This document shows, one piece after another, positions 5,199 through 12,355 of a stretch of 64,000 nucleotides of DNA (within the stretch, counting starts at the first letter, position 1; every line of letters begins with the position of its first letter). The notes under the pieces are model-generated. The model saw only the letters and a list, made by a program, of their open reading frames with translations. It was not told where the DNA came from and searched no databases. The DNA comes from Oceaniferula marina (GTDB lineage: Bacteria > Verrucomicrobiota > Verrucomicrobiia > Verrucomicrobiales > Akkermansiaceae): positions 124,001-188,000 of the forward strand of contig NZ_JACBAZ010000002.1 of the NCBI RefSeq assembly GCF_013391475.1, written 5' to 3'. A program made the position numbers and the translations under genes.

Positions 5199-5774
5199 CT
5201 AACGCATGCGCTTCCGGAATCCAACCAACCCGCCAAACCCCATCAACAGAAAGGCAATGCTAGCGGGTTCGGGGACAACATTAAAAGTCTGATCAACCAC
5301 AGTAGGTCCAGCAAATGGATTATGAGTTGTACTACTTCCTGCAGGGACCGCATCGATTTTTTCAAGTTGCCCCGACACACCAGATTCCGCATACATCATG
5401 CCATCGAGGTCAAGCAGATTAAACCCCGAAGTGGCGCCGGTATAATCAAAAACACGAGTATATACATAGCCGCCCACATAGATATCAGACGCCTCATCCA
5501 CAGTTTCCCCTACAACATAGGATCCATTGGGATTATTAAATTCAAACATAACCACTTCGGAGGAATCCACCTCAAAAGGATTGGTTGAATTAAAAGAAGA
5601 AATAACTCCGTCTGGAGTCCAAATTAACTGCCAGACGGAATTGGCAGACAGTGGAGTCACATTATCGATTTTAAAAACTTCATCCACTATATTGGGCATA
5701 TCCCAGTATACCTGCGTGGATGCATTGGCGTTGCCGAAAAGAAGTAAGGCTAAAAGAATAGATTTTTTTCGCAT
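5199..5774 (-). CDS. PEP-CTERM sorting domain protein, 191 aa
   Basis: Signal peptide at residues 1-19 (MRKKSILLALLLFGNANAS). The beta-rich middle has no known domain. At the C-terminus is the tripartite PEP-CTERM signal: VPEP at about residue 168, the hydrophobic segment ASIAFLLMGFGGLVGF, and the basic tail RKRMR. Such proteins are known substrates of exosortases, which cleave the tail and anchor or release the protein at the surface; no exosortase gene is in this window. It stands alone between the repeat region and the Wadjet operon. Confidence 0.88.
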   Translation of the reverse strand: MRKKSILLALLLFGNANASTQVYWDMPNIVDEVFKIDNVTPLSANSVWQLIWTPDGVISSFNSTNPFEVDSSEVVMFEFNNPNGSYVVGETVDEASDIYVGGYVYTRVFDYTGATSGFNLLDLDGMMYAESGVSGQLEKIDAVPAGSSTTHNPFAGPTVVDQTFNVVPEPASIAFLLMGFGGLVGFRKRMR

Positions 5775-6110: not shown

Positions 6111-6446
6111 CTATAATTCTTGCTCAAATACACGGGCGAGATCTTCTCGTAATTGTGTTGGAGATGGCGTGCCGATTTGTTCGAACAGCCAGAGTTCTCC
6201 ATCGGGCAGCGTTAGTCGAATGCGTTCGGGTTCGTGGCTTTTAGGATTTCGATCGATACGAAGCAGTTTGCCTGATCGAGCCTCGGCTGAGCGGAGTTTT
6301 TGTTCGGCGATCTCTCTCTCATCACCATCGGCGAGCCCGGCTGAGCGGAGGAATTTTTCGTAGTCGATTCGAAACGTCGAACTTTGAGCACGCCCCATTC
6401 CAGCTGCGGATTTTTGATAGATTTTGGCAAGATGCTGGAGTGGCAT
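6111..6446 (-). CDS. jetD: Wadjet JetD, N-terminal fragment only (truncated)
   Basis: 111 codons from the ATG at 6446, fourth in order after jetA, jetB and jetC. The text (LAKIYQKSAAGMGRAQSSTF, then DYEKFLRSAGLADGD and ERIRLTLPDGELWLFEQIG, PSPTQLREDLA) matches what I know of the N-terminal arm of JetD/DUF2220-type proteins. Complete JetD is a nuclease of roughly 380-400 residues whose C-terminal TOPRIM/Topo VI-like domain cuts the plasmid. Here translation ends at TAG (6111) before that domain, and no remnant follows. The product would therefore lack the nuclease. Family assignment rests on position and recalled similarity; the truncation is seen directly. Confidence 0.7.
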   Translation of the reverse strand: MPLQHLAKIYQKSAAGMGRAQSSTFRIDYEKFLRSAGLADGDEREIAEQKLRSAEARSGKLLRIDRNPKSHEPERIRLTLPDGELWLFEQIGTPSPTQLREDLARVFEQEL

Positions 6447-6454
6447 GGGAGGTT

Positions 6455-6594
6455 GAAGATGGAAGATGGAAGATGGAAGATGGAAGATGGGAGATGGGAG
6501 ATGGGAGATGGGAGATGGGAGATGGGAGATGGGAGATGGGAGATGGGAGATGGGAGATGGGAGATGGGAGATGGGAGATGGGAGATGGGAGATC
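6455..6594. repeat. 7-bp tandem repeat between jetC and jetD
   Basis: 19 full heptamers run without interruption: five gaagatg units (6455-6489), then fourteen ggagatg units (6490-6587), then a partial ggagatc. In the operon's sense this is a pyrimidine-rich CATCTYC array ending 8 bp before the jetD ATG. It fills most of the 165-bp space after the jetC stop. The unit is not a multiple of three, and frames through it are open on both strands, which generates artefact ORFs. Confidence 0.95.
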
Positions 6595-6611
6595 AGCGGA
6601 AGGAGTGAGGT

Positions 6612-9600
6612 CTATTTCTCCAGGCCGTTGGCTTTCATCCAGTCCTTGCCGTCTTTGCTGTCGCGGAAGAGGACGACGGGAACGTTGCGCACGCCGATGC
6701 GTTTGCCGCGGCGTTCTTCTTTTCGGGAGATGACGATGAGTTCGTCGCACTGGCTGAAGGCGTAGGGGATGTTGCCGCTGGACATCGAGAACATACCTTG
6801 GAGGTCGAGTTGGGCCATGGCGAGGATGCAGTTCTGGATTCGTTCGCCTGAGAGTTTGGAGAACGCCTCATCGATGGGAACGAGGGCGAGGGATGGCTCC
6901 TTGCGCCGGGTTTCGTGACGTTTGTAGGCGTGCAGGTAACTGGCGAGGATGGCGACAAAGTACGGGCTTTGGTTTTCGCCTCCACTCATCTTGCCACTTT
7001 GTTTGTCGACACTGACCGGTTTGAGTTTCGGGTCGCGGATGTCGGTGACCAGAAGATCGTAATCGAAGTATTGCCGGTAGTCGAGCAAGCGGGCGGCTTC
7101 CGGGCTGTTGCTCCCCTTGCGGGTGAGGATCTGGAGGAAGTCTTCGAGTGCTTGTTTGAGTTCCTCACCCATACTGGCGAAAAACAATTCGTCTTCGTGG
7201 TGCAGGGCGTTGCGGTCGATGAGTTCGCGGTAGACTTTGAAATCCGGGTTGGCTTTTTTGGCAATCTTGTAGCGGTCGTGGCCGATCGGCTGTTTGAGTT
7301 GGACGTTGAGCAGCGAGATGATGTTTTCGACGTTGTTGAGTGCCTGTTGCATCCGGCTGAGCACCTGGGTGCGGAACAGGGACTCCCATCGGCGACGCTC
7401 CTGCTTGGATTTTTTTTCGTAGGATGGAATATCTGCATTTTCGATGCTTTGCAGGATGCGTTCGTAGGCATCGGTTTCATGGGGTGTATCCGGCAGGTCG
7501 TCGAACTTCGGGTGGTATTCCCGTTTGAAATCGGCCATGGCAATGGTGATTTCGGCGCTGCTTTGGCTGGAGGATTGTTCGGCAGCCTGGGCGGCTTTGG
7601 AGAACTCTCTGCGCTGGACATCGAGGGCGGGGAAGCGCTCCGCCATGTCCTGTTTCCACTCGTCGTAGCGTGCCTGGTGCGGGTAGATATTGATTGCCTG
7701 CTGGATTTTCAAAAACTCCTGCTCACGGCGTAGGTATTCTTCCTTGTAGTTGGCGAGTTCTTTTTCGGTGCGGCGGATTTCGCCGATACCTCCTTTGCGC
7801 AGGATGCTGGTGTTTTCAGATTGCAGCGCCTGTGCCTGGGCTTCGAGGTCGTGGATTTCCTGCTCGAGTTGTTCGAGCTGATCGGTGGAGACCGCCTGAA
7901 GCTGAGCCATACCTTCGGCGTGCTTGCTTTCCAGTCCGGGGAGCTCTTCGATCCGGATCAATTGCCGGGTGAGCTCGGTGTGGTGCGGGATCTTGTTATT
8001 GCGCTCGGTGATCAGTCGTTGGACTTCGGTTTCGATGGGTTCGAGTCGGCGCAGTTCGGCCTCGATTTCGCGCAGTCGGCTTTGTTTCGATTCAAGTTGG
8101 CGCTGCAGTCCGGACTCACCGATGAAGGGGGTGCCGTCGTATCCGGGAGGGCGGCTGATGGTGGCGCCGCATTTGATGATGCCATCGATGGAGATGGCGG
8201 AGTCGTGTTGGTGAAGTTCGTCGGAAGACTGAACGCGGATCAGCTTGCCAAAGTGTTGGTCGATGTAGCTACGAGCGGCGGGGTCATCGCAGGAGAACAA
8301 TCCGGCGAGGGCGTTCTTTTTGATTTTCCCTGACTTGCCGGGTTTGGATGTGATGGCCCCGCGGTCGATCAACTCCTGCCCTTGGCTCTGTTGGATCTCG
8401 GACTCCGGGAGGGATTTCAGGATGTTGCTTGCGGCTTCGAAGTGATCGGAGCTGACAAAGACGGAGAATTTTTGGCTGAAGGCCATTTCGGCGGCGGCAC
8501 GCCATGATTCGTCGGTGATCTCGTAGAGTTCGCGTGCTGCCTGGGGTGGTGTTTCTCCGGGCAGGACGGGGAGCTGGCTTTGCAGGGCTGTTAGGAGTGG
8601 CTGGGGGTGTGGAGGGAGCCCTTGCTGGAGGAGGGAAATGTGGCGTTGGAGCTCTTCCTGTTCCCGGCGAAATTGGCGCAGTTGTTCGTCTTCTTTGCGG
8701 AAGCTATCGCGGATTTTTTTACACAGTTTGTCGGCGGCCGCGGCCAAGAGTGAGAGGTGGTTGGCATTTTCTTCCTGTTTGCAGCCATCGAGGAGTTTGA
8801 TTTCAGTGAGGAACTCGGCGGTGTTGACCGGTGGGTCACAAGGGGCCTGGGCGATTTCCTGAGCCCACTGCTTCGCTTGTTGGAGTCGGTTTCCGATGTC
8901 TCTATCGACTTTGGCGGAAATGTTGCGCAGTTGCTCGAGCCGTTTTTCCATTTCCTCGAGCTCATCGCAGAGCCGTTTGTAGAAGCGTCCTTCCTCGGAT
9001 TCGTTGAGCAGGGCGGTGCAGGTGTCACGTCGTCTCTGGACCTCTGTTAATAATTCGCCGATTTCAGCGAGGCGCTGTTCATCCTCCTCATTTTCTTTAC
9101 GGAGTTGGTCGAGGTGTTGTTGGCCGTGGTCGAAGAGGTCCTTGGCGAAGGCAAAGGCGGTTTCCGATGTGAGGTAGCGTGCCACCTCCTGGTCTTGCTG
9201 CGCTTGCTTCAGGGTGGTGGCATGGGTGCGGATGGCGAGCAGCCGCTCGAGTTGGCCGCGCAGGTCGTGAAGTTCGCGTTCATAGGTTTCGAAATCGCGA
9301 AAGCTGGAGATGACATCCTCGACCGGGATGCCCTCGCTGGGCAGGACAAACTGACGGCAGAAGTCGTCGAAGCTTTTGAGGTTGGTGAATGACATCGCGG
9401 AGGGCAGTAGCCGTTGGATGACATCCTGGTTGAAGTTGAGGTGGCTGGGGTTGGACATATCGCGCAGGTATTCGCGCGAGGAACTGAATAGCCGTCCCTG
9501 GTGGGAATCGATGAGTTGTTTGAACTCGGCCATGGTGGCCGGGTACTGTTTGCCGTCGTGTTCGGAGCGGCGGAGAAAATCGTCCCGTTCGAGGGATGCG

Positions 9601-10010
9601 GGACAGAAGAACGGGGTGATGTTTCCTTCGTGTTCGGAGACGCCGCGGTATTCGAGTCGGAGTCCCCAGGTTTCGACACGCTGGCCATCGGGCCAAGTGA
9701 ACTCGGCTGCGATGTAGGTGGTGATTCCTTTGTGGTGGAAGTATTGGGGTTGGCCGTTTTCCTCCCGTTTGGTATCGAGCAGGCAGTAACTTTTGATGGT
9801 CCGGTCACTTTTTCCGCCGGTGGCGCTACGGTTGAAGTGATGGCGTGCGCGTTCGGGGCCGACGAGGACAAGCATCAGCAAATCCATGAGGATAGATTTC
9901 CCTGAGCCGGTGACGCCGGCGAGGACGAGGTTGCCTTTGACGGGTAGGCTGTCTCGGTAGCCGTACCAGTTGAGTGCGTGGATTTTGGATAGGTTGATGG
10001 CCCGGCTCAT
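6612..10010 (-). CDS. jetC: Wadjet JetC, SMC/MukB-like ATPase
   Basis: 1132 residues. Walker A is GVTGSGKS at residues 32-39, just after a short N-terminal beta segment. The ABC signature KMSGGENQSP lies near residue 1009 and Walker B LALVPIDEAF near 1040-1050. Between them are long Glu/Gln/Arg-rich coiled coils (about 280-470 and 640-800) around a globular hinge (about 490-640). This is the loop-extruding motor of Wadjet, which acts with the kleisin JetA and JetB on small circular DNA. Its ATG overlaps the jetB stop as ATGA (10007-10010), so the two are probably translationally coupled. Length and motifs are complete and there is no sign of decay. Confidence 0.95.
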   Translation of the reverse strand: MSRAINLSKIHALNWYGYRDSLPVKGNLVLAGVTGSGKSILMDLLMLVLVGPERARHHFNRSATGGKSDRTIKSYCLLDTKREENGQPQYFHHKGITTYIAAEFTWPDGQRVETWGLRLEYRGVSEHEGNITPFFCPASLERDDFLRRSEHDGKQYPATMAEFKQLIDSHQGRLFSSSREYLRDMSNPSHLNFNQDVIQRLLPSAMSFTNLKSFDDFCRQFVLPSEGIPVEDVISSFRDFETYERELHDLRGQLERLLAIRTHATTLKQAQQDQEVARYLTSETAFAFAKDLFDHGQQHLDQLRKENEEDEQRLAEIGELLTEVQRRRDTCTALLNESEEGRFYKRLCDELEEMEKRLEQLRNISAKVDRDIGNRLQQAKQWAQEIAQAPCDPPVNTAEFLTEIKLLDGCKQEENANHLSLLAAAADKLCKKIRDSFRKEDEQLRQFRREQEELQRHISLLQQGLPPHPQPLLTALQSQLPVLPGETPPQAARELYEITDESWRAAAEMAFSQKFSVFVSSDHFEAASNILKSLPESEIQQSQGQELIDRGAITSKPGKSGKIKKNALAGLFSCDDPAARSYIDQHFGKLIRVQSSDELHQHDSAISIDGIIKCGATISRPPGYDGTPFIGESGLQRQLESKQSRLREIEAELRRLEPIETEVQRLITERNNKIPHHTELTRQLIRIEELPGLESKHAEGMAQLQAVSTDQLEQLEQEIHDLEAQAQALQSENTSILRKGGIGEIRRTEKELANYKEEYLRREQEFLKIQQAINIYPHQARYDEWKQDMAERFPALDVQRREFSKAAQAAEQSSSQSSAEITIAMADFKREYHPKFDDLPDTPHETDAYERILQSIENADIPSYEKKSKQERRRWESLFRTQVLSRMQQALNNVENIISLLNVQLKQPIGHDRYKIAKKANPDFKVYRELIDRNALHHEDELFFASMGEELKQALEDFLQILTRKGSNSPEAARLLDYRQYFDYDLLVTDIRDPKLKPVSVDKQSGKMSGGENQSPYFVAILASYLHAYKRHETRRKEPSLALVPIDEAFSKLSGERIQNCILAMAQLDLQGMFSMSSGNIPYAFSQCDELIVISRKEERRGKRIGVRNVPVVLFRDSKDGKDWMKANGLEK

Positions 10011-10753
10011 GGCTGTGGATCGGCGCTTGATGTTTCGTTTGTTGCGGCTTCGTCGCTTGGTTCATCTTCGATGGTTTCCATCGGTTCTTCATCCAGGGGA
10101 TTTTCCGGGAGTTCGTCCGGATGTTTGGCATCCTGCGGGTTAAAATCCCGGGCGAGCTCGCACCACTCGGTGAGGTCGTGGAAGGGAACGGCGCGGCGGA
10201 TGGCGGGTAGGACCTCGATGCCGGATTCCTCGAAGGGGTCGGAGGATTCCATCTTGATCAGGTTGAAGCGGACGGCTTTGCGGAGAATTTCACGGAGTCT
10301 TCCTTGAGCGATCTGGCCGCTGAGGTCGGGGAGTAATTGGTCCTGAATCAGAGCGTTGAGTTCGGAAACCGAGAGAAATGCCTGGTCGTTTCCTTCGTCG
10401 CGCCAGCGGATGTCACCGGCGTACCAGAGGGCGAGCCAGACAATGGTTTCGTCCTTGCGTAGTCGTAGGCGCAGCGAGCTGACGTGAGGAATCGCCTGGA
10501 TCAGGCGCTCATCATGAAACATGGCGATGTCCAGCCCTGCGACGGTGGCGTATTCCTTGAGGGGCTCGAGATGTTGTCGGCACCAGTGGTAGAGGGTGTC
10601 CGAGCGATGGCCTGAGATGGATCCGCTTGCCAGCAATTGTTGGATGGCTTCACCGAGTCGTTCTCGGTCGTGTTCCGGCAGGTTGATCAGAGGTTCTGCT
10701 TGCTCGGATTCAAAGGCATCCTGGGTGGGTGCTTGTGGTGGTGCGTCGGCCAT
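10007..10753 (-). CDS. jetB: Wadjet JetB, MukE-like winged-helix subunit (DUF4194)
   Basis: 248 residues. The central part has the helix-rich winged-helix layout of the MukE-like subunit (ERLGEAIQQLLASG, HDERLIQAIPHVSSLRLRLR, ALWYAGDIRWRD). The termini are disordered, with an acidic Pro/Glu-rich tail of about 45 residues. It sits between jetA and jetC, as in type I Wadjet operons, and overlaps jetC by 4 bp. It should bind the JetA kleisin and regulate the JetC heads. An 8-bp tandem repeat abuts its ATG, leaving no room for a Shine-Dalgarno sequence. Confidence 0.9.
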   Translation of the reverse strand: MADAPPQAPTQDAFESEQAEPLINLPEHDRERLGEAIQQLLASGSISGHRSDTLYHWCRQHLEPLKEYATVAGLDIAMFHDERLIQAIPHVSSLRLRLRKDETIVWLALWYAGDIRWRDEGNDQAFLSVSELNALIQDQLLPDLSGQIAQGRLREILRKAVRFNLIKMESSDPFEESGIEVLPAIRRAVPFHDLTEWCELARDFNPQDAKHPDELPENPLDEEPMETIEDEPSDEAATNETSSADPQP

Positions 10754-10817
10754 GGGAAGGTGGGAAGGTGGGAAGGTGGGAAGTTGGGAAGTTGGGAAGT
10801 AGGGAAGTAGGGAAGTA
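10754..10817. repeat. 8-bp tandem repeat abutting the jetB start codon
   Basis: Eight units in a row: gggaaggt x3, gggaagtt x2, gggaagta x3. The first unit begins at the base next to the jetB ATG, so the jetB leader in the mRNA is made of YYCTTCCC-type pyrimidine repeats. The unit differs in length and sequence from the heptamer before jetD. Confidence 0.95.
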
Positions 10818-10897
10818 GGTGTTTGGTGAATGGGTGCTGGACAAGCTGTGGGTGTTTGTATTTGGCGTAGTTAGATGAAGGACGGAAGTTCTGAAGA

Positions 10898-12355
10898 CTA
10901 TTTTTTGATCAGGGTGAAGCGCTCTACGCTGCAGCCGGGGAGAGGGTCGGTTTCGGGGGGGATGGATTCTTGTTCCACACGGTCGACTTCCAATCGGTAG
11001 CGGACGCCATTGGATTCGGCATGTAGTAGCAGGGAGATGAGGTCTGAGAATCCGGCTTCTCCTTCGAGTGGGAGATCGGCGCTGGCGATACAGATCCCTT
11101 TGCCGCCGGGGAGAGATTTGACGTAGCTATTGGCCCGGTGGGCCGAGAGGGACTCCTTGAGAGCGCGGCCCATATCGCTGAGGGCTCCCTCGCGGTCGCC
11201 TTCTTCGATGGCCTCGTCGAAGGAGTCCTGTTTGAGGTCGGGTCGTTTGATTGGCGGTTTATAGAGGGAGTCGAGACCGGCGGGAATGGAGGCTGAGGGG
11301 AGTCGGAAGGCGGGAAAGGATTCGTCTATCTGGGTGACTTGGGTGATTTTTTTTCCAGCGTGCCTGTTATTCAGGGTGTCGAAAAAGGCTTTGACCTCTC
11401 CGCGACGCTCACCGGTGACGTCCTGGAGGTAGCGGAATCGGGCGAGTGATCGGCGAATGAAGTCGGCGGTGCGGCGGTCGATTTCATCGGCCATCGGCAT
11501 GACGCGTTCGATCAAAGTGATGAGTTCGTCGAGGGTGTTGCCGACCATGGCCCGGGCGGTCTCGGCGCTCATGTCGGGGTGGCGCCTCAGAACCTCGGTT
11601 TGCATATCGGAGAAGGCGGACGCGTCCGACATCAGGCGTTTGGTGATGCGGTTGACTGCGGCGGGAAGCCGGAGTGGGAGCCGGGAGCGGACCATCTCGG
11701 CGTAACAGGCGTGTGACATCTGTTCGGTGTAATCATCGAAGACGACGCTGAGATTGCCTTTGAGGGTTTCTTCTTCGAGCTGGCGCCGAGTGAAGCGCTG
11801 GATGGATTTTTGCATCGACTGCAGTTCCGAGAGCCCGTCTTTGACGTTGGCGATGCAGTTTTCGACGGTTTGCCATGGAGTGTCCGAGAGGCTGGATTCA
11901 TCGGCGAGCATTGAGCAGACGCCGATGAGTTTGTCGGTGAAGACGGCGGCGTCTGGCCAGGCGATTTTACGCAGGGCTTGGATCAGGGTGGCTCCGTGGG
12001 CGTCGAAGTAGATGATTTTCCGCCAATCGCGCTGGGGTGGTTCATCGAGCCAGTGGCATTTCAGGAGGTAGTGCAGCAGAAGTCGGGCTTTGTCGCGCGG
12101 CGAGCTGGCTTCGGAGGGGTCCTGGGATTCGTCCTCCAGTTCGATGAATTCGAATCCGGGGTGGCGCTCCAGGGTGTCGGTGATGACGGCGATGACCTCT
12201 TCCCTTGCCAGTCCGTCCGGTTTTTCAGCGGTGAGCTGTTCCAATTCATCGAGCACATCGACGTAGAAGGCTGCGTTTTTTCCGGATAGAACGCGAAAAA
12301 ATCCAGGGCCCCGGGTTTCGCGGAACAGGGCGGTGGAGAGGTGCTCGGTGGACAT
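10898..12355 (-). CDS. jetA: Wadjet JetA, MukF-like kleisin subunit (DUF5716)
   Basis: 485 residues, the usual size for JetA. The N-terminal winged-helix part begins STALFRETRGPGFFRVLSGK and continues with FYVDVLDELEQLT. The middle is helical and coiled-coil (ELQSMQKSIQRFTRRQLEEE; PMADEIDRRTADFIRRSL), and the C-terminal beta-rich domain ends in a Val/Arg/Glu-rich strand. As the kleisin it would bridge the JetC heads and carry JetB. It is the first gene of the operon, 144 bp before jetB; its ATG lies about 300 bp from the divergent hydrolase gene. The identification comes from operon order, size and recalled family similarity. Confidence 0.9.
   Translation of the reverse strand: MSTEHLSTALFRETRGPGFFRVLSGKNAAFYVDVLDELEQLTAEKPDGLAREEVIAVITDTLERHPGFEFIELEDESQDPSEASSPRDKARLLLHYLLKCHWLDEPPQRDWRKIIYFDAHGATLIQALRKIAWPDAAVFTDKLIGVCSMLADESSLSDTPWQTVENCIANVKDGLSELQSMQKSIQRFTRRQLEEETLKGNLSVVFDDYTEQMSHACYAEMVRSRLPLRLPAAVNRITKRLMSDASAFSDMQTEVLRRHPDMSAETARAMVGNTLDELITLIERVMPMADEIDRRTADFIRRSLARFRYLQDVTGERRGEVKAFFDTLNNRHAGKKITQVTQIDESFPAFRLPSASIPAGLDSLYKPPIKRPDLKQDSFDEAIEEGDREGALSDMGRALKESLSAHRANSYVKSLPGGKGICIASADLPLEGEAGFSDLISLLLHAESNGVRYRLEVDRVEQESIPPETDPLPGCSVERFTLIKK

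What the first reader, a model, noticed from the sequence alone, without database searches (positions are those of the whole stretch)
6111..12355. Wadjet operon with intact motor genes but a jetD cut to its N-terminal quarter
Seen: jetA, jetB and jetC are full length with motifs intact (JetC Walker A at 32-39, SGGEN near 1009, Walker B near 1047), while jetD stops after 111 codons and no C-terminal TOPRIM/Topo VI-like part follows in any minus-strand frame to 5775. Known: Wadjet needs JetD to cut the extruded plasmid. Inference: either recent loss of nuclease activity, or a nuclease-free loop extruder kept for another role, perhaps sensing without cutting. Intact jetABC beside a broken jetD is not what uniform decay would give.
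Basis: partly seen in the sequence, partly recalled or inferred. Interest (0 to 1): 0.8.

Follow-up and report, generated by a model that had tools for sequence, protein, structure and literature searches.

The report
Plasmid-defence motor without its cutter
A bacterial system that normally reels in foreign plasmids and cuts them has kept its DNA-reeling motor but lost the cutting enzyme, and relatives show that the same loss has happened many times, so the motor may be useful without the cutter.

Summary
Window 6111-12355 (minus strand) is a type I Wadjet operon with full-length jetA, jetB and jetC. The 111-codon ORF is the N-terminal quarter of JetD: it aligns with residues ~5-111 of the ~400-aa JetDs behind jetC in relatives and stops there. 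No JetD C-terminus was found elsewhere in the 5.07-Mb, 97%-complete assembly. A base-call error is excluded; a misjoin is unlikely.

It is not unique. Of 94 resolved jetC loci (window included), 60 have intact linked jetD, 24 none there, 6 a broken one and 4 one elsewhere in the genome. Losses are scattered over the JetC tree. In seven comparisons of a jetD-less locus with a jetD-bearing relative, synteny shows jetD gone from behind an intact jetC. JetABC stays under purifying selection without JetD in relatives, and one deep clade lacks jetD altogether; in that clade 6 of 9 genomes also lack a detectable Smc hinge.

JetD-less JetABC is already in print (Stenotrophomonas; P. aeruginosa MksBEF), so this is a new member of a known kind. 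For the window: a disarmed Wadjet whose motor is probably still functional. A MksBEF-like role is plausible but not shown, because its jetABC diverges most within its group.

The parts
10898..12355 (-). jetA (kleisin), 485 aa, full length
   Evidence: Pfam JetA E 1e-48; PADLOC JetA1 E 2e-40
10753..10816 (.). 8-bp tandem array, 8 copies, in the jetA-jetB gap
   Evidence: TRF
10007..10753 (-). jetB (kite subunit, DUF4194), 248 aa; overlaps jetC by 4 bp
6612..10010 (-). jetC (SMC/MukB-like ATPase), 1132 aa; Walker A at 32, SGGE at 1009, Walker B region at 1044
6445..6593 (.). 7-bp tandem array, 21 copies, between the jetC stop and the jetD fragment
   Evidence: TRF
6111..6446 (-). jetD N-terminal fragment, 111 aa, equals JetD residues about 5-111 of about 400; the Toprim/catalytic part is missing
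5199..5774 (-). 191-aa PEP-CTERM protein downstream; next ORF on this strand past the truncated jetD, unrelated to JetD

Best explanation
This is a type I Wadjet locus that has been disarmed in place. A rearrangement in the host genome removed or displaced the last three quarters of jetD (all of the Toprim nuclease) and left jetABC whole. JetABC most likely still forms an ATP-driven SMC motor that can load on DNA and extrude loops (inferred from intact subunits and motifs), but it can no longer cut circular plasmids. It is one of many independent JetD losses in this bacterial order. In at least some lineages the nuclease-free JetABC is kept by selection, most plausibly for a chromosome-looping role like that of MksBEF. 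Shown here: the truncation, absence of the C-terminus, repeated loss elsewhere, purifying selection on jetABC without JetD in relatives. Inferred: motor activity, loss of plasmid restriction, and the chromosome role.
For: Fragment identity and missing C-terminus. Recurrence: 24 absent, 6 broken and 4 relocated against 60 intact among 94 resolved loci. On the JetC tree the gross losses need 16 changes of state; the absent class alone needs 14, of which starred branches force 12 (SH-aLRT only). Removal of jetD with synteny on both sides in seven losers, jetC stop spared, one (G207 against G683) between two single-contig genomes. In G191 the last ~20 codons of jetD remain; in G052 its first codons. 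jetA and jetB lie whole beside jetC in 19 of the 20 absent-jetD loci with complete jetC (loci were chosen for a jetA or jetC match). Selection without JetD: jetC w 0.047 and jetA w 0.044 for G753/G757 (dS 0.68 and 0.53), which share the next gene after jetC; jetC w 0.082 for G036/G040 and 0.064 for G231/G719, the last with saturated dS. Pooled jetC N/S 0.26 on loser against 0.23 on keeper branches over 11 pairs. A deep clade of nine without jetD. Precedent: a review states that P. [quoted passage not shown]
Against: For the window itself retention is not shown. Its JetC has the longest end branch of its clade: 0.51, against 0.19-0.22 from the same fork to its two sister rows. It has the most departures from otherwise invariant columns: JetA 13/162, JetB 5/73, JetC 17/400, next worst 7, 3 and 11 (JetC 28/416 in a 17-member set). 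N/S on its branch against its sister: jetC 1.01/0.60 and ScpA control 0.66/0.29 with one outgroup, but jetC 0.92/0.60 and ScpA 0.51/0.42 with another, and mean pN of its ScpA is not raised; so a jet-specific relaxation is possible. In 7 of 11 pairs N/S was higher on the loser branch. Many losses sit at single tips, as they would if jetD-less operons were short-lived. The window's genome has Smc and ScpA, so JetABC would be an extra. Whether jetD is lost more often than jetA, B or C was not tested.
Confidence: 0.56

Rival explanations
1. Transient ruin: JetD was lost because it was costly or because a plasmid had to be tolerated. JetABC has no function now and is simply not yet broken.
For: Many losses at single tips; the window has the most departures at invariant sites, and the ScpA control does not clearly explain that; two related loci have decayed further (G151: jetC broken in two frames and only a tail of jetD; G113: only part of jetA, no jetC).
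Against: jetA, jetB and jetC are full length in 19 of 20 absent-jetD loci with complete jetC (selection of loci biases this); loser/keeper pairs have jetC w 0.03-0.12 against 0.02-0.15 in eight keeper/keeper pairs; shared jetD absence with w 0.047 in G753/G757; a deep clade without jetD.
Confidence: 0.35
2. The 111-aa JetD N-terminus is itself a working protein, for example an adaptor or a dominant-negative brake on JetABC.
For: The fragment is no more diverged than the same part of other JetDs (mean pN 0.416 against 0.377-0.435; 2 of 18 otherwise invariant sites changed, as in two intact JetDs). The ORF is open.
Against: No other relative examined retains only this part; other losers leave nothing detectable, a tail, or about ten codons. 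It is cut off from jetC by a 149-bp repeat array. AlphaFold without an alignment gave pLDDT 47, uninformative. A recent truncation explains the conservation equally well.
Confidence: 0.05
3. JetD acts in trans from another locus.
For: It does occur in relatives: G009, G049, G139 and G021 have jetABC with jetD unlinked.
Against: No JetD_C or further JetD-profile match in the window's genome, which is 97% complete.
Confidence: 0.02
4. Assembly artefact: a misjoin just after codon 111 hides an intact jetD.
For: Draft genome of 88 contigs; no reads are available here.
Against: The C-terminal part was found in no contig; the window lies inside a 973-kb contig; the same kind of loss is seen in single-contig relatives.
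Confidence: 0.02

Closest known systems
Wadjet type I (JetABCD / MksBEFG / EptABCD)
   Same: JetA1, JetB1 and JetC1 proteins in the usual order; the fragment is the N-terminus of a JetD1
   Different: No Toprim nuclease, so not a complete system; PMC10586767 (passages) says all four subunits are needed to suppress plasmid transformation in B. subtilis
Wadjet I lacking jetD in Stenotrophomonas maltophilia (PMC11680222, passages)
   Same: jetABC without jetD in a fixed island; the more frequent of two variants there, its JetABC over 95% alike between strains; called probably inactive
   Different: Other phylum; the window keeps the first quarter of jetD
MksBEF of Pseudomonas aeruginosa (PMC7485682, PMC10586767, passages)
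   Same: Three-subunit SMC motor beside Smc-ScpAB; [quoted passage not shown]
   Different: The proteins here fall in the JetA1/B1/C1 families; no chromosome role has been tested
MukBEF
   Same: Architecture kleisin + kite + SMC; replaced Smc-ScpAB in its hosts according to PMC10586767 (passage)
   Different: Only distant sequence likeness (Pfam MukB 15 bits, under its cut-off); the window's genome keeps Smc and ScpA

Membership tests
Wadjet type I | JetA kleisin, JetB kite, JetC SMC-like ATPase adjacent and collinear | tested here: met
Wadjet type I | JetC Walker A, signature and Walker B motifs present | tested here: met
Wadjet type I | JetD with C-terminal Toprim nuclease | tested here: not met
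Wadjet type I | restriction of circular plasmids | not testable with these tools
   needs a transformation assay
MksBEF-like condensin | three-subunit SMC complex without nuclease | tested here: met
   genes and absence of JetD; that the proteins form a complex is inferred
MksBEF-like condensin | membership of an MksB/MksE/MksF sequence family rather than Jet | tested here: inconclusive
   Only an MksE model was met in the scans: JetB scores 12.2 bits with it, under its cut-off, and 55.9 bits with DUF4194; PADLOC assigns JetA1, JetB1, JetC1; MksB and MksF families were not compared directly
MksBEF-like condensin | role in chromosome organisation | not testable with these tools
   needs Hi-C or localisation
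decaying pseudo-operon | frameshifts, stops or lost motifs in jetABC | tested here: not met
decaying pseudo-operon | relaxed constraint on jetABC | tested here: inconclusive
   divergence raised in the window; the ScpA control is raised with one outgroup and hardly with another

The most novel reading that the evidence does not exclude
Losing JetD is a repeated route by which a plasmid-defence SMC motor becomes a chromosome-organising condensin. In a jetD-free clade of the same order it has gone to completion: in the four genomes of the window's family where jetA, jetB and jetC are seen together, JetABC is the only SMC-type condensin that the searches detect, Smc (and, in the two tested, ScpA) being gone. 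The window would be an early, naturally caught step on that route.
Probability: 0.34. Interest if true: 0.8.

Novelty: new member of a known kind. Interest (0 to 1): 0.55.

Why it matters
A review speculates that MukBEF and MksBEF descend from Wadjet-like defence systems (PMC10586767, passages). Here is a set of close relatives, some differing at this locus by little more than removal of jetD, in which that idea can be tested: sister genomes with and without the nuclease, a clade that has long lived without it, and genomes in that clade without a detectable Smc. It also warns that defence-system surveys that count jetABC as Wadjet may overcount active plasmid defence.

Tried and rejected
Tried without result: genome-contig scan with JetC found no relative; a second scan with the JetD alignment gave only 10 loci, too few for the reciprocal question whether jetD survives loss of jetABC. 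PDB search with the JetD profile found only topoisomerase VI subunit A. AlphaFold of the 111-aa fragment alone gave pLDDT 47, not used. JetB N-termini were read by eye for the IFDR motif that a review names as a JetD contact (PMC10586767); they looked too variable to place it, so co-loss could not be judged.

Rejected: (1) sequencing error, because the last ~290 codons were not found anywhere in the assembly. (2) 'jetD elsewhere', see rivals. (3) My first idea that five relatives were all jetD-less: four of them carry jetD unlinked. (4) A firm claim either way on relaxed constraint in the window: the ScpA control depends on the outgroup. (5) That missing jetD always accompanies loss of Smc: G006, with jetABC, has the Smc hinge, and so have G723 and G724.

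Rows dropped: of 74 genomes with a jetA match 73 were analysed (G090 left out, contig ends); of 42 further genomes, 36 were fetched (G642, G670, G672, G674, G678, G696 left out, mostly split or partial jetC). Of 109 loci, 15 could not be resolved (contig end, or no jetC on the jetA contig, or G151 with broken jetC); counts rechecked. Four of the 24 'absent' loci have only a jetC fragment and are not in the tree. Four of the 6 'broken' cases (G064, G093, G212, G671) are single stops or frame breaks that could be sequencing errors. Absence was checked genome-wide for 12 of 24, none found; the other 12 only at the locus.
Full report
What is in the window. On the minus strand, jetA (10898-12355), jetB (10007-10753) and jetC (6612-10010) are open, full length and collinear. 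Two of only four tandem arrays in the 64 kb lie in the gaps of this operon: 8 bp x 8 between jetA and jetB, and 7 bp x 21 between jetC and the next ORF. That ORF, 6111-6446, gave no JetD match in single-protein library scans, but relatives identify it. In them jetC is followed by a ~400-aa protein with Pfam JetD_C (8 of 8 scanned, E 3e-9 to 2e-15) and PADLOC JetD1 (3 of 3). The window ORF aligns with residues ~5-111 of it, 45-56% identical to the five nearest full JetDs, and ends there.

Is the rest elsewhere? Not found. JetD_C has no match in the own genome (the same search finds it in 4 of the other 8 genomes). The JetD profile finds only the N-terminal piece. The next ORF on the same strand is an unrelated PEP-CTERM protein. 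So the loss is real unless the assembly lacks the missing part altogether.

Relatives. In one search, 74 of 239 sampled genomes of the order have a jetA match. With a later family search by JetC (59 of 260 genomes) I examined 109 loci, the window included; 94 could be resolved. States: 60 intact linked jetD, 24 none at the locus, 6 broken (the window; G191 with only the tail; G064, G093, G212 and G671 with single stops or frame breaks), 4 with jetD elsewhere in the genome. Among the eight single-contig genomes with jetC, five have jetD next to jetC (G219, G103, G100, G056, G683), two have none (G207, G006) and one has it 2.5 Mb away (G049). Missing jetD is therefore not just an assembly effect.

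How often and how. On a tree of 93 JetC proteins, intact or relocated against absent plus the two grossly broken needs 16 changes, and 20 if all broken cases count (quick LG+G4 tree, long branches flagged, no bootstrap; parsimony cannot by itself tell gain from loss). Synteny settles the direction where it is readable. G052/G142, G641/G639, G207/G683, G146/G636, G156/G079, G197/G142 and G191/G079 align up to within 30 bases of the jetC stop, and again beyond jetD, with jetD missing from the first member. In G641/G639 the gap also takes about 0.7 kb beyond jetD. Three further loser/keeper pairs (G133/G033, G094/G677, G638/G677) share no detectable sequence past jetC, so nothing can be read there. 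In G191 a C-terminal tail of jetD remains, in G052 the first codons. The window is a separate event: its closest JetC relatives are G219 (jetD intact) and G695 (contig ends early).

Is jetABC kept without JetD? For the group, probably. jetA and jetB lie whole beside jetC in 19 of 20 absent-jetD loci with complete jetC. G753 and G757 both lack jetD at the locus and have the same next gene; their jetC, jetA and jetB have w 0.047, 0.044 and 0.035 (not checked genome-wide for jetD). Over 11 loser/keeper pairs with outgroup the pooled jetC N/S is 0.259 for losers and 0.230 for keepers; it is higher in the loser in 7 of 11 (G142 and G677 each serve in two pairs, and the keeper of G154 has its jetD unlinked). 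A deep clade has no jetD after jetC in 9 of 9 genomes (G132, G231, G719, G721, G723, G724, G725, G634, G006) and none in the genome in the 3 of 9 tested. In five of the nine (G132, G231, G719, G725, G006) jetA and jetB stand with jetC; G724 has jetC without them; in three only jetC fragments at contig ends were seen. Six of the nine are in the tree. The proteins are JetA1/B1/C1 (PADLOC on G132's three and G006's JetC), and JetC of G132 is 67% identical to that of G231 (same family) and 68% to that of G006 (another family).

For the window itself the evidence is mixed. The fragment and jetABC are open and the motifs intact. But its JetC has by far the longest end branch of its clade, and it leads all 21-22 members in departures from otherwise invariant positions: JetA 13/162, JetB 5/73, JetC 17/400. 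N/S on its branch is raised against its sister for jetC (1.01/0.60) and for the ScpA control (0.66/0.29), but with another outgroup the figures are 0.92/0.60 and 0.51/0.42; jetB flips (1.15/0.46, then 0.54/0.67); mean pN is raised for jetA, jetB and jetC, not for ScpA, slightly for Smc. A mild jet-specific relaxation is thus possible and not shown. The JetD fragment is no more diverged than the same stretch of other JetDs, which suggests a recent truncation.

Mechanism. In the total-extrusion model, JetABC dimers reel in DNA; on a small circle the two motors meet and activate JetD (PMC10586767, passages). Without the Toprim part nothing can be cut; JetABC should still load and extrude (inference). 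In P. [quoted passage not shown] That is the role I think most likely where jetABC is kept. The window's own genome has the Smc hinge and ScpA.

A possible end point. Six of the eight genomes of the jetD-free clade in the window's family lack a detectable Smc hinge domain (G132, G231, G719, G725, G721, G634; the last two are only 82% and 72% complete), while G723, G724 and, in another family, G006 have it. All four genomes of this family with jetA, jetB and jetC seen together (G132, G231, G719, G725) are among the six. ScpA is only a sub-threshold scrap in the two tested, G132 and G231. Limits: the genome search missed the weak hinge-like stretch of G132's own JetC, which a direct scan sees at 26 bits, so its sensitivity is finite; true Smc hinges here score 77-96 bits. 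Nine of nine tested genomes of genus g2, without a jetA or jetC match, also lack the Smc hinge. By family and genome size g2 is probably Akkermansia (my inference), and a Hi-C study reported no known condensin in A. muciniphila (PMC10197239, passages). So in this family Smc can be lost without JetABC, and replacement is a hypothesis, not a result.

Literature status. JetD-less Wadjet I with conserved jetABC is reported in S. maltophilia and called probably inactive (PMC11680222, passages). Searches for Wadjet with JetD, Wadjet with Verrucomicrobi-, MksBEF/MksG loss, JetABC or 'without JetD', incomplete Wadjet or lacking jetD (15 of 35 listed) and a mixed search (12 of 15 listed) showed no title or abstract start that describes repeated JetD loss. 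Only open-licence papers are held, and I read passages of seven papers, none whole. Verdict: observation confirmed, ordinary in kind but part of a larger and testable pattern.

Noticed in passing
L040-L042 with L084-L086, and L038 with L087: jetD lies far from jetABC (G049: about 2.5 Mb away on one contig) in three species of one genus and in a separate lineage, G009; whether such a split system still works is unknown.
   Followed up: partly
G132, G231, G719, G725 (loci L082, L081, L198, L200): Genomes with jetABC, no jetD at the locus and no detectable Smc hinge: JetABC may be their only condensin.
   Followed up: partly
L199 (G724): A complete jetC without jetA or jetB beside it, in a genome that has the Smc hinge.
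   Followed up: no
window 6445-6593 and 10753-10816: Two of only four tandem arrays in the window sit in the gaps of this one operon; G064 has a 7-bp array in its jetC-jetD gap too (L033). A link with jetD loss is unknown.
   Followed up: partly
window genus g1: G000 and G154: Only 2 of 14 genomes of the genus have jetC, from different places of the JetC tree (separate acquisition is likely), and both lack a whole jetD.
   Followed up: partly
L093 4912-5469, L097 3278-3835, L106 1964-2521 (coordinates with jetC turned to the + strand): A ~185-aa ORF (MKQSE...YMVGG) sits between jetA and jetB in two genomes and upstream of jetA in a third; possibly a nucleotidyltransferase-like accessory or inserted gene (a guess).
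   Followed up: no
L033 (G064): jetD runs out of frame near model position 370 and its frame continues as a 1135-aa open frame; a fusion or a frame error.
   Followed up: no
L037 (G005): Roughly 0.9 kb lies between jetB and jetC, where the close relatives have about 0.2 kb or less.
   Followed up: no
L130 (G151), L089 (G113): Wadjet loci in visible decay: G151 has jetA and jetB whole, jetC broken in two frames and only a tail of jetD; G113 has only part of jetA and no jetC.
   Followed up: partly
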